DNA of 64,000 nt from Agelas oroides (lineage: Eukaryota > Porifera > Demospongiae > Agelasida > Agelasidae): NCBI GenBank assembly GCA_949130485.1, contig OX422195.1:8982029-9046028 (forward strand), written 5' to 3'. Positions 30,701-35,758 of the stretch are shown here, piece by piece. The notes beneath the pieces were generated by a model. The model ran no database searches. It was not told where the DNA came from and saw only the letters and a list, made by a program, of their open reading frames with translations. Numbering within the stretch: the first letter of the stretch is position 1; each line of letters opens with the position of its first letter. Position numbers and translations under genes: made by a program.

Positions 30701-31872
30701 GTCCCAAACTGAAGTGGCCTTTCTCAATTCACAGAAGGAGGTAAGAAAAACTGTTCCCTTCTCTCCCCTCCCTCCTTCCCCTCTCTCCTCTTCCCTCCTC
30801 CCCTCCCACTCCTCCTCTTCCTCTTCCCCCTCTCTCCTCTCCTCTCCTCTCCTCTCCTCTCCTCTCCTCTCCTCTCCTCTCCTCTCCTCTCCTCTCCTCT
30901 CCTCTCCTCTCCTCTCCTCTCCTCTCCTCTCCCCTCTCCTCTCCTCTCCTCTCCTTCCCTCTCCCTCCTCCCTCCTTCCCTCTCCTCTCCTCTCTCTGAC
31001 TGACTTTTTCTCCCCAGCGACTGATACAGTTTCCCTATGGTCTGGTCTGCGGATGTGGGAGAGGGCTACAACATGACTCGTGCTTTGCACTCATGACAGC
31101 TGGAAATACATCCTCACAAGGGTCACCACCCTCACAAGAGTCACCACCCTCACAAGGATCACCATCCTCACAGGGATCACCACCCTCACAAGAGTCACCA
31201 CCCTCACAAGGATCACCATCCTCACAGGGATCACCACCCTCACAAGAGTCACCACCCTCACAAGGGTCACCACCCTCACAGACATCACCATCCTCACAAG
31301 AGCTACTCCCCTCACAAGAGTCACTACCCACACAAGAGTCACCATCCTCACAAGGGTCACCACCCTCACAAAAGCCACCACCCTCACAGGGAAGAAAGAG
31401 ATTCACTGCCTATATCTTTGAGGCCTCATCCTCTGAACTGGTCAGTTGTACATAAAGACATAAAGAAATATTCTCATTTCCAGGTCACCCCCACCTGGCT
31501 TTCCACCACATGTAAAGCAGACAGCTAGGTGGGAGCCTGGGAACACGGTAGCCTCGTCCCCAGGCCCGTTCGAAAAATCAAACGGGCTCCGATGTTTCGA
31601 ACGGGCCTGAACTGGGCCTGGGAACGAGGCTAGGGAACATGGTTGACATGTCATGGCTTGTTACCTATGTTGTCTTGTACTGCAGGGTCACTACATTTGC
31701 GCTGACATTGGTAAGTTATCGTATCTTACTTCTGGTTTGCATGCTCTGTGTAACGTCTTGAAGTAATAAGCAGATGGAAGCTAAATCTGCTGTCTGTAAG
31801 TGTACCTTTCTTTCTTTTGCAGCCAAAGGATTCAGTCGTACAGAGTGGAGAAAACCCGACAATACTATATGA
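25939..31872 (+). CDS. RUN + PDZ-like + PTB domain protein, family not recognised
   Basis: Exons: 25939-25975, 26239-26346, 26720-26747, 27199-27252, 27362-27413, 27469-27576, 27778-27823, 27908-28002, about 28148-28295 (uncertain), 28805-28854, 28925-28999, 29078-29134, 29447-29595, 29717-29768, 30552-30614, 30684-30740, 31018-31440, 31686-31710 and 31823-31872. All others join in phase. The N-terminal part resembles a RUN domain (FCETLEAVLRNGLK, WFGLN/RQDYWSWI, NPLLRQVVNVVVSSTKLRT). The middle has a PDZ-like core (KAGVDVGDVLDELCGEPVLD). The C-terminal part is PTB/PID-like (TEYKVVHLGRAEN, FLNSQKE, FTAYIFEASSSEL, GHYICADIAKGF). RUN domains bind small GTPases and PTB domains bind NPxY-type peptides, so a trafficking adaptor is inferred. 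An 18-bp minisatellite lies in frame inside the PTB exon. I know no named gene with this order. Confidence 0.78.
26075..26132. repeat. Short foldback of the CCCAGGC family
   Basis: TAGCTTCGTTCCCGGGCCTT faces GGTCTGGGAACGAGACT with a short loop. It sits in the first intron of the RUN/PTB gene. No matching target duplication is seen, so this copy is probably old. Confidence 0.7.
26395..27198. repeat. CT-rich tract with duplicated exon fragment
   Basis: Two long CTCC/CCTT arrays flank a 42-bp segment (26748-26791) that is nearly identical to the true exon start at 27199-27242 (GCAAGACTACTGGTC, GGATTGAACCACT). ORFs spanning the array are a by-product of stop-free pyrimidine repeats. Confidence 0.85.
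28344..28745. repeat. 20-bp minisatellite, about 20 copies, palindromic E-box core
   Basis: Units read GTAGGTCACATGACGGTGGG with G/A variation at one position (GGGGTAGG or GGGATAGG). Each holds the palindrome GTCACATGAC. It lies in an intron of the RUN/PTB gene. Confidence 0.95.
31108..31395. repeat. 18-bp minisatellite inside the PTB exon, about 16 copies
   Basis: Units of the type TCACCACCCTCACAAGAG. In the gene's frame they read as Ser/Pro/Gln-rich hexapeptides (SPPSQE/G). All six frames are open because the unit is a multiple of three without stops, so openness alone does not prove translation. Confidence 0.92.
31549..31632. mobile_element. Foldback MITE with 10-bp near-perfect target duplication
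   Basis: TAGCCTCGTCCCCAGGCCCG faces CTGGGCCTGGGAACGAGGCTA; an inner stem of GTTCGAAA...TTTCGAAC continues the inverted repeat. Flanks gggaacacgg and gggaacatgg differ at one base. Confidence 0.88.
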
Positions 31873-32104
31873 CAATTTGGTGTGTACCACTATACATGGA
31901 GTGTATTCTTTGTACTATATATTGGAGTGAGAAATTTTTAGTTTGTCAAAATTTAATACAACCAAACAAGCTAGTGACAGCAGACACTACAATCATATTT
32001 ATACTTCCAAAAAAAAAATGTCTAAAAAAAACTGGTTTAGTACCAAAGAAAGATGTATTTGTTGGAAATGTGGAGTGGAAAAGTGAGAGGAAAATAAAAA
32101 ATCA

Positions 32105-32186
32105 TGGCAGCGGTGGGATTCGAACCCACGCCACTTTCGTGACTGGTGCCTTAAACCAGCGCCTTAGACCGCTCGGCCACGCTACC
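32105..32186 (-). tRNA. tRNA-Leu (AAG)
   Basis: 82 nt folding as a class II tRNA. The acceptor stem is GGTAGCG/CGCTGCC with discriminator A, the D arm has the A-box GTGGCCGAGCGG, the anticodon stem is CTGGT/ACCAG with loop TTAAGGC giving anticodon AAG, and a long variable arm and a TTCGAATCC T loop (B box) follow. A T6 run just downstream is a Pol III terminator. It lies 53 bp upstream of the ICT1 start codon, on the opposite strand. Confidence 0.96.
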
Positions 32187-32239
32187 ACCTGGTGAATGCC
32201 TACCCCACATTGTATCTTTAACCATGATCCTGAGACAGC

Positions 32240-33618
32240 ATGGCCGCTGTCTTAGTTGGGACGTGCTGCCGTTTGCGAGCACTCACACAGTCCAAGAGAC
32301 CTCGCAGTGTATTTCTGTGCAAATGGTGGTCTCCAAACGTGCACAGATTCTCCTTTGGATCTGAGGTGGGTGATGTTGGGGAGGTAGTATCATGCCTATG
32401 CTTGTTATCAATCTGCCTTTGTACCAGTTACTACAGTTCTGCACTACATCTGGGAATGCTGGGAGCAGTGAAGAGCTGGAAACGTATGAGGGCCCTGTCC
32501 CAAGAGGTGGGTGTGTACTGTGGGTGAAGCTATTCTTGTTGTAAGCATGTGCTATCCCACTTATTTTTCTGCAGACAAACTGTCTGTTTCATTCTCAAGG
32601 AGCAGTGGACCTGGAGGACAAAATGTCAACAAAGGTAGTGTGGCCGAGCGGTCTAAGGCGCTGGTTTAAGGCACCAGTCACGAAAGTGGCGTGGGTTCAA
32701 ATCCCACCACTGCCAGACATTTTTTTCTCACTTTTCCTTTTTTCATACCATATCTACAAAGAGTGCATGTTGTTTTTTTTTTTTTTTTTTTTTCTGAGAT
32801 GCTTCTCATCAGAGTCTTGTAGTTGTGAGGAGGCTGACAATGTGTGTGTGTGTTCTGCAGTAAACACTAAGGCAGACGTGAGGTTGCATGTGGACTCTGC
32901 AGAGTGGGTGCCTGTGAGAGTCAAAGAACGACTGAAAACAATGGTAAGTGCATGATCACAAACTTTACCGTGCTGCATACCGTGCTGCATACCGTCCTTC
33001 ACTTCTTTCCTCCCCAGCTCCCACCCTTCCTCAATCCCTCCTATCCATCCCTCCTTTGATCCCTCCCTCCTATCCCTCCCTCCCTTGATCCCTCCCTCCT
33101 TCCTTCCCCCTCACCTCCCATCCTTTATATATCTCTCCCTCTAGTTTAAATCCCGTATTAACAAGGCTGGAGAACTGGTGATCTCCTCCCAGCGTTTTCG
33201 TTCCCAGCACCAAAACCTTGAGGATGCCATCAGCAAACTTGAAGGGTTCCTGCGGGAAGCTTCTGAGGTACCAAAAGGACCCTCCCAGCTGACCCTTGCC
33301 AGGATCAGGGTGCTGTGAGTTATTGTAGTTTCTAGTGTTAAACAGCAACCTACTAAATGCTCCATGCTACCTCTGAAGGGAATTGTTGGTCCCAATGGTG
33401 TCAGCTATAGAGGGATTCCACTGTACTGGGAGGTAGGAAATGCTGTGGGGTATATACCCGGTATATAGTACAGAATGTTTGAGTAGTGCTAGAGTTTAAG
33501 TGGTTATTCCTCAAAAATGTTATTTTATTACAGCAAGAGGAGGTCCGAGCGGCGGAGACTTACTGAGAAAAAGTATCACTCACACAAGAAATCATCAAGA
33601 AGAACTGATGATTTATAG
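32240..33618 (+). CDS. MRPL58: ICT1/mL62 peptidyl-tRNA hydrolase of the mitochondrial ribosome
   Basis: Six exons join in phase to 197 residues (human about 206): 32240-32365, 32437-32506, 32575-32634, 32861-32943, 33145-33314 and 33534-33618. A basic N-terminal mitochondrial targeting region is followed by the RF1/RF2-like GGQ domain (KLSVSFSRSSGPGGQNVNK). The basic C-terminal tail (KRRSERRRLTEKKYHSHKK) is typical of ICT1/YaeJ and reads the empty mRNA channel. The protein hydrolyses peptidyl-tRNA on stalled mitoribosomes and is a component of the large subunit. Oddly, the 5' splice site of intron 3 (AAAG/GTAGTG at 32634/32635) coincides with the first bases of a tRNA-Leu gene. The tRNA fills the start of the intron. 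The gene converges on CFAP61. Confidence 0.94.
32634..32715 (+). tRNA. tRNA-Leu (AAG), overlapping the ICT1 intron 3 donor
   Basis: 82 nt, nearly identical to the copy at 32105. The acceptor stem is GGTAGTG/CACTGCC, so one base pair has changed on both strands (C-G to T-A), which preserves the fold. The T loop reads TTCAAATCC, an allowed purine change at position 57. Anticodon AAG. A T7 terminator follows three bases after the gene. Base 1 of the tRNA is the last base of ICT1 exon 3, and bases 2-3 form its GT donor. Confidence 0.95.
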
Positions 33619-33625
33619 GACATAC

Positions 33626-33682
33626 TAGCCTCGTTCCCAGTCCTCTGCCAACGGCTGTCATGGAGGACTGGGAACGAGGCTC
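33626..33682. repeat. Foldback element between ICT1 and CFAP61 3' ends
   Basis: TAGCCTCGTTCCCAGTCCTC faces GAGGACTGGGAACGAGGCT around a short loop, 7 bp after the ICT1 stop codon. It could act as the 3' UTR hairpin of ICT1. The flanking 9-mers agree only partly. Confidence 0.8.
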
Positions 33683-33774: not shown

Positions 33775-35758
33775 TCATATCATGTCTGGTTTGGCATACA
33801 TGGGGAGGTGGTAGGAGTTATACTGGAGGAATCGGAACAGTCTGTTCTCAATCACTTTCTTCACTGGAGAGGACTCAAACTCAGTGGCCAGTCTGGCTCG
33901 GTGGTTCACTAGTGATACCTTGGAGAGGTGGGAGGGTGTGTGGGTGTGGGATAGGGGTGTGAGTATGCAGGAGTATGGTCCATGGGGGTGAAGGGTTTAC
34001 AGGTAGCTGCAAGACCTGGATGGCGGGTTGTACTCACTTCAATGTCTTCCTCAAGTAGCTTCTGTACTCTTTCTTCAAATGACTCTGTCTCCCCCTCCTG
34101 TGAAATGAGGAGCCATATTGTCTATTAATGTACGATTAGCAGGGACTGGGTAGATTGGCCATGCTGTGCATGTGTCACCCTCTCCTCACCCTGACCTCGT
34201 TCCTAGGCCCCCACCTTCTCATAGCAGTATAGCAAGTAATAGAAAAGCTGCCGGGTGGGAACAAGGCTACCTCCCTCCATTGCCACACTTGTCCCCTCCC
34301 TCCCCTCCCCCCTTTGTTCCTCACCATGGGTGTGGCCAGGTGTTCTCTGATCTCCTCCATAAAGTCTGGGAACCGATCGTGGAAGACAGCACATGTCCAA
34401 GGCTCACAGAAATAACTGCAGTAGGTCAGTACATGATCAAACTGCCGTGCAATGACAGGTTGATGGTCTAATTGGTCAGCAATTGTAATAACATCTGCTA
34501 GACCCTCTCTCACTTTCTGGTGAGAGATGGTCTGGCTTGACAGACTGTGAGAGAGACTAGCCAGACCATCTCTCACCCTCCAGAAAAGTGAGAGACTAGG
34601 TCAGTACACGATCAAACACTGTGCAGTGTGGTGATCTCTCTTACCTGAAGAAGTCTGTGATGAGGTTGTCGTCGTACCTCACAAGGAGATTGTTGAGGTA
34701 CTTCTCATGCATGTTGTAGAGACAGAGGTAGTTGGTCACCTCAAATGGCTGCAGGCAAAGGAGCAGCAGGGAACACAACACTCTAACAGGCAAAGGAGCA
34801 GCAGGGAACACAACACTCTAACAGGCAAAGGAGCAGCAGGGAACACAACACTCTAACAGGCAAAGGAGCAGCAGAGAACACAACACTCTAACAGGCAAAG
34901 GAGCAGCAGGGAACACAACACTCTAACAGGCAAAGGAGCAGCAGGGAACACAACACTCTAACAGGCAAAGGAGCAGCAGGGAACACAACACTCTAACAGG
35001 CAAAGGAGCAGCAGGGAGTACAACACTCTAACAGGCAAAGGAGCAGCAGGGAACACAACACTCTAACAGGCAAAGGAGCAGCAGGGAACACAACACTCTA
35101 ACAGGCAAAGGAGCAGCAGGGAACACAACACTCTAACAGGCAAAGGAGCAGCAGGGAACACAACACTCTAACAGACAAAGGAGCAGCAGGGAACACAACA
35201 CTCTAACAGGCAAAGGAGCAGCAGGGAACACAACGCTCTAACAGTGACAGATCAAACACGACCCAGGTTTATTATTCCCTCTTTGGTGCAGAGCTCAGGT
35301 ACAAGGTTGGCTTTGTGCCTGAGCTCTCTTCTCAACAAGGAGCAGCAGTGAACACAAGGCTGGCTTTGTGCCTGAGCTCTCTTCTCAACAAGGAGCAGCA
35401 GTGAACACAAGGCTCTAACACGGCTCAGGTACGAGGCTGGCTTTGTGCCTGAGCTCTCTTCTCAACAAGGAGCAGCAGTGAACACAAGGCTCTAACACGG
35501 CTCAGGTACGAGGCTGGCTTTGTGCCTGAGCTCTCCTCTCAACAAACAGGAGAAGGAGAGAGCCTGGGGATGAGGCTAGCAGTGGCCAGCTCTGCGGTGC
35601 AAACGGTGGGTGGGATTTGACCTCACCTGTTTGCTGAGTATGGTGATGGTCTGTATTTTGTTGTACTGGTTCACATGTAGCCTGAAGTAGCTGCTGTCTG
35701 TGTCTGTCACCAGTTCACGGCCCTGTGTGGGTGTGTGTGTGTGGGGGGGGGGGGGGGG

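What the first reader, a model, noticed from the sequence alone, without database searches (positions are those of the whole stretch)
32575..32860. A tRNA-Leu gene supplies the 5' splice site of ICT1, a peptidyl-tRNA hydrolase gene
Seen: ICT1 exon 3 must end at 32634 for the GGQNVNK/VNTK join to hold. Base 32634 is position 1 of a foldable tRNA-Leu(AAG), so tRNA bases 2-7 (GTAGTG) are the intron donor. Known: tRNA genes are Pol III units with internal promoters. Inference: U1 binding and Pol II transit compete with Pol III transcription at this point, and the acceptor stem and splice site constrain each other. A tRNA insertion may have created or shifted the donor.
Basis: partly seen in the sequence, partly recalled or inferred. 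Interest (0 to 1): 0.82.

Follow-up and report, generated by a model that had tools for sequence, protein, structure and literature searches.

The report
tRNA gene overlapping ICT1's splice donor
In a eukaryotic (probably animal) genome, a complete-looking tRNA-Leu gene begins on the last base of an exon of the mitochondrial ribosome-rescue gene ICT1, so the same bases would have to serve as a splice site and as a tRNA end; it looks like a local duplication that landed there without breaking the gene, and whether the two uses compete is untested.

Summary
ARAGORN and Rfam both place a tRNA-Leu(AAG) at 32634-32715 (+). A six-exon ICT1/mL62 gene (32240-33618) with no second copy found needs exon 3 to end at 32634 to give the conserved GGQNVNKVN stretch. 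Base 32634 is therefore the last exon base and tRNA base 1, and tRNA bases 2-7 are the donor GTAGTG. The intronic copy differs from both at 3 of 82 sites, each CpG to TpG/CpA; two of them turn an acceptor-stem C-G pair into T-A. A genome search gave 12 hits, all tRNA-Leu genes, so it is not a SINE. Best reading: a local inverted duplication, tolerated because tRNA-Leu's GGTAG also reads as a donor. The donor is middling for this genome (10 of 20 others score lower). Splicing and RNase P release of the tRNA from one ICT1 transcript would exclude each other by geometry, as for splice-site-overlapping microRNAs; this is inference. Transcription of the tRNA, competition and conservation are all untested. 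Striking, probably incidental.

The parts
32240..32365 (+). ICT1 exon 1 (start codon; likely mitochondrial targeting region, inferred), donor GAG|gtgggt
32428..32506 (+). ICT1 exon 2, donor GAG|gtgggt
32575..32634 (+). ICT1 exon 3, ends in ...GGQNVNK plus first base of a Val codon
32635..32860 (+). ICT1 intron 3 (226 nt), GTAGTG...CTGCAG; up to 32741 it resembles the inverted upstream copy
32634..32715 (+). tRNA-Leu(AAG); base 1 = last base of exon 3, bases 2-7 = splice donor
32641..32651 (+). A box TGGCCGAGCGG (Pol III internal promoter; motif recalled)
   Evidence: sequence
32694..32704 (+). B box GGTTCAAATCC (11 of 11 other tRNA-Leu hits have GGTTCGAATCC; motif recalled)
32720..32726 (+). 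T7 run, likely Pol III terminator, 4 nt after the tRNA
32105..32186 (-). sister tRNA-Leu(AAG), inverted, 53 nt before the ICT1 start codon; identical to the copy on contig C4
32861..32943 (+). ICT1 exon 4, donor ATG|gtaagt
33145..33314 (+). ICT1 exon 5, donor GCT|gtgagt
33534..33618 (+). ICT1 exon 6, coding part; stop codon TAG at 33616-33618

Best explanation
A tRNA-Leu(AAG) gene was duplicated locally and in inverted orientation from the copy just upstream of ICT1 (inferred) and now starts exactly at the exon 3/intron 3 border (shown). ICT1 stayed intact because tRNA-Leu starts with GGTAG, which also reads as a usable donor (G|GTAG) after the exon's AAA; the GGTA shared by typical donors and by the tRNA may also have been the join (inferred). 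The main use of the site is most likely ordinary ICT1 splicing at 32634 (inferred from protein conservation). The tRNA copy keeps a callable cloverleaf, A and B boxes and a T7 terminator, and may be transcribed by Pol III at some level (not shown). On any one ICT1 pre-mRNA, splicing takes tRNA base 1 away with the exon, while RNase P cutting before base 1 would cut off the donor, so the two products exclude each other by geometry; whether RNase P ever acts there is unknown. I take the arrangement to be tolerated rather than selected.
For: tRNA called by two programs; its fold is -35.1 kcal/mol, z -2.97, 0 of 200 shuffles as good (that energy fold keeps the acceptor and T arms but not a canonical anticodon arm). 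ICT1 open and without a second copy found. Closest relatives are the inverted copy 447 nt away and the C4 copy, both 96% and identical to each other; ungapped similarity to the inverted copy runs 26 nt past the tRNA 3' end. 12 hits in the genome, all in called tRNA-Leu genes. All three differences are CpG to TpG/CpA (P = 0.027 if three random C/G sites were hit, 0.006 if three random sites), in a window with CpG o/e 0.33. Polarity: the base at 66 is G in 11 of 11 other tRNA-Leu hits; 6/76 is C/G in L010, L011 and L015. U1 5' end TAACTTACCTG in 12 of 12 genes read. A donor AAG|GTAGCA was placed by script in a CCT gene.
Against: The 3'-flank match to the inverted copy is only suggestive: 12 of 1000 shuffled flanks reach its score, and two other tRNAs' flanks do about as well (11 and 18 of 1000). 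The C4 copy shares TCAACAA just before the tRNA with exon 3, which the upstream copy does not, so a source at C4 is not excluded; by score that match is no better than shuffles (224 of 1000), and the best of the seven 5'-flank scores is with an unrelated UAG gene, not adjacent to the tRNA (3 of 1000; 14 flank tests in all). No transcripts, no empty site and no relative were available, so direction and age of the copying are inferred. The kept pair at acceptor position 6 could mean selection for a working tRNA, that is more than mere tolerance.
Confidence: 0.68

Rival explanations
1. Splice-or-tRNA switch: the overlap is used. When the tRNA folds or Pol III/RNase P engages, the donor is hidden or cut off and ICT1 mRNA falls; when U1 binds first, ICT1 is made and no tRNA comes from that transcript.
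For: In the folded 322-nt context bases -1 and +1..+6 are almost fully paired (mean unpaired 0.004 against 0.105-0.236 for the four other ICT1 donors). The donor has T at +5, where 17 of 20 local donors have G. Splice-site-overlapping microRNAs work this way (PMC8465124, passages).
Against: Averaged over -3..+6 the donor is no less accessible (0.23) than the others (0.17-0.25), and bases -1 and +1 are already paired (0.02 unpaired or less) at all 12 transcript lengths tried, also before the 3' half of the acceptor stem exists, so hiding is not special to the tRNA fold. Donor strength is middling, 10 of 20 lower. In C. elegans same-strand intronic tRNAs have lower Pol III occupancy (PMC4999229, passages). 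A paper in the reference list of the review reports by its title that processing of splice-site-overlapping miRNA exons does not change alternative splicing (title only). CpG decay in this copy hints at a methylated, little-used gene.
Confidence: 0.12
2. The tRNA copy is a dead or dying pseudogene that only serves as intron sequence and donor (not exclusive of the duplication story).
For: 5 CpGs where the two sister copies have 8; same-strand position inside a host gene, lower Pol III occupancy in C. elegans; human tRNA loci are mostly unmethylated (PMC8113476, passages), so CpG decay suggests less protection.
Against: The changed acceptor pair is still a pair, Rfam score 56.8 against 56.1 for the sister, the B box change is still a purine, T7 terminator kept. 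C-to-T changes could also come from transcription-associated mutation in an active tRNA gene (mentioned for flanks in PMC8113476).
Confidence: 0.25
3. The true donor is 32637 (TA|GTGTGG) or both tandem donors are used, giving NK-GI-NTK instead of NK-VNTK.
For: It is in phase and open.
Against: Scores 0.09 against 1.70, and would insert a residue into a stretch that has no gap in the 3 printed alignments. It would still lie inside the tRNA, so the main observation stands.
Confidence: 0.05

Closest known systems
Intronic nuclear tRNA genes (C. elegans: 44% of 609 tRNA genes; PMC4999229, passages read)
   Different: Here the tRNA is not merely inside the intron: its first base is exonic and its acceptor stem contains the donor. 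That paper calls release of intronic tRNAs by splicing theoretically possible.
Splice-site-overlapping microRNAs (SO-miRNAs; review PMC8465124, passages read)
   Same: A structured RNA lies across an exon/intron border, so its processing and splicing can exclude each other.
   Different: Here a tRNA with its own Pol III promoter, and the processing enzyme would be RNase P; no competition has been shown.
nimtRNAs, nuclear intronic tRNA-like copies of mitochondrial tRNAs (PMC7722341, passages read)
   Same: tRNA-shaped intron sequence near a 5' splice site; in a two-exon reporter such an insert 50-100 bp downstream raised splicing most, in a three-exon reporter one close to a 5' splice site lowered exon inclusion.
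   Different: This is a cytosolic-type tRNA-Leu with Pol III boxes, and it contains the donor rather than lying downstream of it.

Membership tests
Functional nuclear tRNA gene (tRNA-Leu AAG) | Complete cloverleaf over the curated score | tested here: met
   ARAGORN call and 56.8 bits (cut-off 29)
Functional nuclear tRNA gene (tRNA-Leu AAG) | A box, B box and T-run terminator | tested here: met
   read against recalled consensus motifs
Functional nuclear tRNA gene (tRNA-Leu AAG) | Transcribed and processed | not testable with these tools
   no RNA data
ICT1/mL62 (MRPL58) | RF-1 domain with GGQ; best sequence matches are ICT1/mL62 | tested here: met
   PF00472 68.7 bits (cut-off 35); of 18 PDB sequences matched, the best 10 are named ICT1/mL62, 6 are bacterial ArfB/YaeJ-type, 2 are weak cyanovirin matches
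tRNA-derived SINE | Many dispersed copies with a non-tRNA body and tail | tested here: not met
   12 hits, all in tRNA-Leu genes; intron remainder 32742-32860 matches only itself. Caveat of the tool: words very common in this genome are skipped
Splice-site-overlapping structured RNA (SO-miRNA-like) | Structured RNA spans an exon/intron border | tested here: met
   tRNA base 1 = 32634 = last exon base
Splice-site-overlapping structured RNA (SO-miRNA-like) | Processing and splicing shown to compete | not testable with these tools
   no RNA data

The most novel reading that the evidence does not exclude
A tRNA counterpart of splice-site-overlapping microRNAs: each ICT1 transcript can become either ribosome-rescue mRNA or a tRNA-Leu, chosen by whether U1 or tRNA folding/RNase P gets the seven shared bases first, so that tRNA processing capacity sets the level of a peptidyl-tRNA hydrolase.
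Probability: 0.08. Interest if true: 0.8.

Novelty: new variant of a known kind. Interest (0 to 1): 0.42.

Why it matters
If both uses are live, one set of bases has to satisfy U1, the acceptor stem and RNase P, and the locus becomes a natural test of how Pol II splicing and tRNA processing share a sequence. Even if the tRNA is silent, it would show that a tRNA gene can replace a splice donor without breaking the gene, because GGTAG reads as both. I saw no report of a nuclear tRNA gene containing a spliceosomal 5' splice site in my searches (listings and starts of abstracts only; open-licence PMC papers only; two showed 15 of 232 and 12 of 3,831 papers), so the absence is weak.

Tried and rejected
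SINE origin: rejected (with the tool's caveat on very common words). Second ICT1 copy or empty site in the assembly: none found. Old intron shown by a related gene: the one other RF-1-domain gene matched (C18; subfamily not tested) has one unbroken match (profile 19-56) over the region where ICT1's exon 3 match ends (33), so no support (4 matches in all, 2 of them ICT1's own). Donor strengthened by the change at +5: same matrix score, modest U1 gain, so not claimed. Donor unusually hidden in the fold: depends on the measure, 0.004 for -1..+6 but 0.23 for -3..+6, within the range of the other donors. Donor unusually weak: with a recalled human-like matrix it is the weakest of ICT1's five (0.63 against 1.73-6.26), with the genome-own matrix it is mid-ranked; the latter rests on 16 introns placed by a script in four CCT genes (two of them with a profile offset of 2-3 residues) plus ICT1's four others. 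Same arrangement elsewhere: 0 matches of a degenerate pattern in prokaryote genome contigs, which says little for a eukaryote. Species: not identified; a search for 259.3 Mb and 13 listed genome notes of sponges and two cnidarians gave no genome of this size; that it is an animal is inferred from the ICT1 matches only. The tRNA survey is partial: 20 tRNAs from the window and 17 loci; no rows were printed for L034 and L039-L043, although searches show tRNAs there, so 'k of 20' tRNA counts leave those out. Searches for exonised tRNA-derived repeats gave 5 papers, none followed.

Full report
What is there. The window is C13:8982029-9046028 of a 259-Mb, 141-contig genome of unnamed species. ARAGORN finds two tRNAs in the window, both tRNA-Leu(AAG): 32104-32187 (-) and 32634-32715 (+); Rfam gives 56.1 and 56.8 bits and the borders 32105-32186 and 32634-32715. 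A six-exon gene lies over and around the second: exons 32240-32365, 32428-32506, 32575-32634, 32861-32943, 33145-33314 and 33534-33618 (stop TAG 33616-33618), joined to an open 200-aa protein. Its best matches among solved structures are ICT1/mL62 (10 of 18 matched sequences, E from 2.4e-34; species not printed, recalled as mammalian), with no gap at the exon 3/4 junction in the 3 alignments printed; it carries the RF-1 domain (68.7 bits), and no second copy was found (6 matches, its own exons). The finding's coordinates, exon end and donor are right as far as sequence can tell.

The overlap. The last exon base (32634, first base of a Val codon) is tRNA base 1; donor bases +1 to +6 (GTAGTG) are tRNA bases 2-7, the 5' strand of the acceptor stem. 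With the acceptor at 32861, 32634 is the only GT between the start of exon 3 and the end of intron 3 that keeps frame, motif and spacing; 32637 is in frame but weaker (0.09 against 1.70) and adds a glycine. Reading on into the tRNA meets a stop within it (...ALV*).

Where it came from. The nearest relatives of the + tRNA in the genome are the inverted copy 447 nt upstream and one on C4, both 96% and identical to each other; three further AAG genes and two UAG genes are 87-89% and four CAG genes 79-81%. The inverted pair lies with the 5' ends facing each other, with ICT1 exons 1-3 between, and the upstream tRNA ends its 5' side 53 nt before the ICT1 start codon. Ungapped similarity between the two continues 26 nt past the tRNA 3' end (inverted arms of 108 nt, 87%), but by shuffles that flank match is only suggestive (12 of 1000; two other tRNAs' flanks reach 11 and 18 of 1000), and the 5' flanks of the two show nothing (289 of 1000). 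I infer a local inverted duplication with its 5' join at base 1, where GGTA is shared with a standard donor. The C4 copy is preceded by TCAACAA, as is the + copy in exon 3 (224 of 1000 shuffles score as well), so a join to a C4-derived copy cannot be excluded. CAAC in the last 8 leader bases occurs in 6 of the 20 tRNAs surveyed, the + copy and two pairs of near-twins among them, so it may be a Pol III start signal. The best 5'-flank score of all was with a UAG gene and not adjacent to the tRNA (3 of 1000; one of 14 flank tests); I take it as chance.

What has changed since. The + copy differs from the sister copies at bases 6, 66 and 76 (window 32639, 32699, 32709): C to T, G to A, G to A, each in a CpG of the sisters. 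Base 66 is G in the 11 other tRNA-Leu hits, so that change is derived; at 6/76 the sisters and L015 have C/G, and four others (L012, L013, L014, L016) G/C. By the chance that three hits at C/G sites all fall in CpGs is 0.027. The window is CpG-poor (o/e 0.33, TpG o/e 1.26), as expected for a methylated genome (inference). Bases 6 and 76 lie in a CpG facing a CpG in the stem, so decay on each side turns a C-G pair into a T-A pair; pairing is kept, but this needs little or no selection. Human tRNA loci are mostly unmethylated (PMC8113476, passages), so CpG loss hints that this copy is less protected; the same paper mentions transcription-associated mutation near tRNA genes, another source of change. 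Promoter boxes and the terminator remain.

The donor. All 12 U1 genes read begin TAACTTACCTG (17 of 19 matches over the cut-off). From four CCT genes, 16 introns were placed by script; with ICT1's four other donors they give a matrix in which AAG|GTAGTG scores 1.70, above 10 of 20. It lacks G at +5, as do 3 of the 20. A recalled human-like matrix makes it ICT1's weakest donor. Predicted U1 pairing is -6.5 to -6.7 kcal/mol, against -6.2 with the sisters' start and -9.7 with the GGTAGGG start of the other subfamily. In the tRNA fold, bases -1 to +6 are 0.4% unpaired, against 10-24% for the other ICT1 donors, but over -3 to +6 there is no difference, and bases -1 and +1 are already paired at each of 12 shorter or longer transcript lengths. 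The exon 3 stretch AAAATGTC is also perfectly complementary to the tRNA trailer GACATTTT (8 bp; 71 of 5000 shuffled leaders reach it; none of the 19 other surveyed tRNAs exceeds 6).

Mechanism. Shown: shared bases, open gene, callable tRNA, near-identical sister copies. Inferred: splicing at 32634 is the main use; the tRNA copy may be transcribed by Pol III; on one Pol II transcript splicing and RNase P cleavage exclude each other, because the cut before base 1 and the splice after base 1 are one base apart. Not shown: any transcript, any competition, any regulation. In C. elegans 44% of 609 tRNA genes are intronic, no more than chance, and same-strand ones have lower Pol III occupancy, although specific tRNA-host pairs are conserved among Caenorhabditis species (PMC4999229, passages); so my default is a tolerated passenger.

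Compared with what is known. It would work most like splice-site-overlapping microRNAs (PMC8465124, passages) if both products are made; in anatomy it is an intronic tRNA gene pushed one base into the exon. nimtRNA reporters show that tRNA shapes near a donor can raise splicing, or lower exon inclusion, depending on the construct (PMC7722341, passages), so the sign of any effect on ICT1 is open. My literature searches (listings only, partly capped) showed no nuclear tRNA gene that contains a spliceosomal donor. I rate it a new variant of a known kind, of moderate interest.

Noticed in passing
window 32621-32628 and 32716-32723: Exon 3 AAAATGTC is perfectly complementary to the tRNA trailer GACATTTT, extending the tRNA fold by an 8-bp helix.
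   Followed up: partly
window 32105-32186 and 32240: A tRNA-Leu gene lies head to head 53 nt upstream of the ICT1 start codon, so Pol III and Pol II starts may be very close there as well.
   Followed up: partly
L029, L035, L036 and window, leaders of tRNA genes: CAAC occurs within the last 8 leader bases of 6 of 20 surveyed tRNA genes (two near-twin pairs among them), possibly a Pol III start signal.
   Followed up: partly
window about 34780-35250: Tandem array open in several frames with 34-aa repeats such as [34 protein letters not shown].
   Followed up: no
window 31549-31632 and about 33627-33681: Short inverted-repeat elements with CCTCGTTCCCAG-like ends, MITE-like.
   Followed up: no
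G000 C14 5551346-5634519: Cluster of U1 snRNA genes: 12 of the 17 over the cut-off lie in about 83 kb.
   Followed up: no
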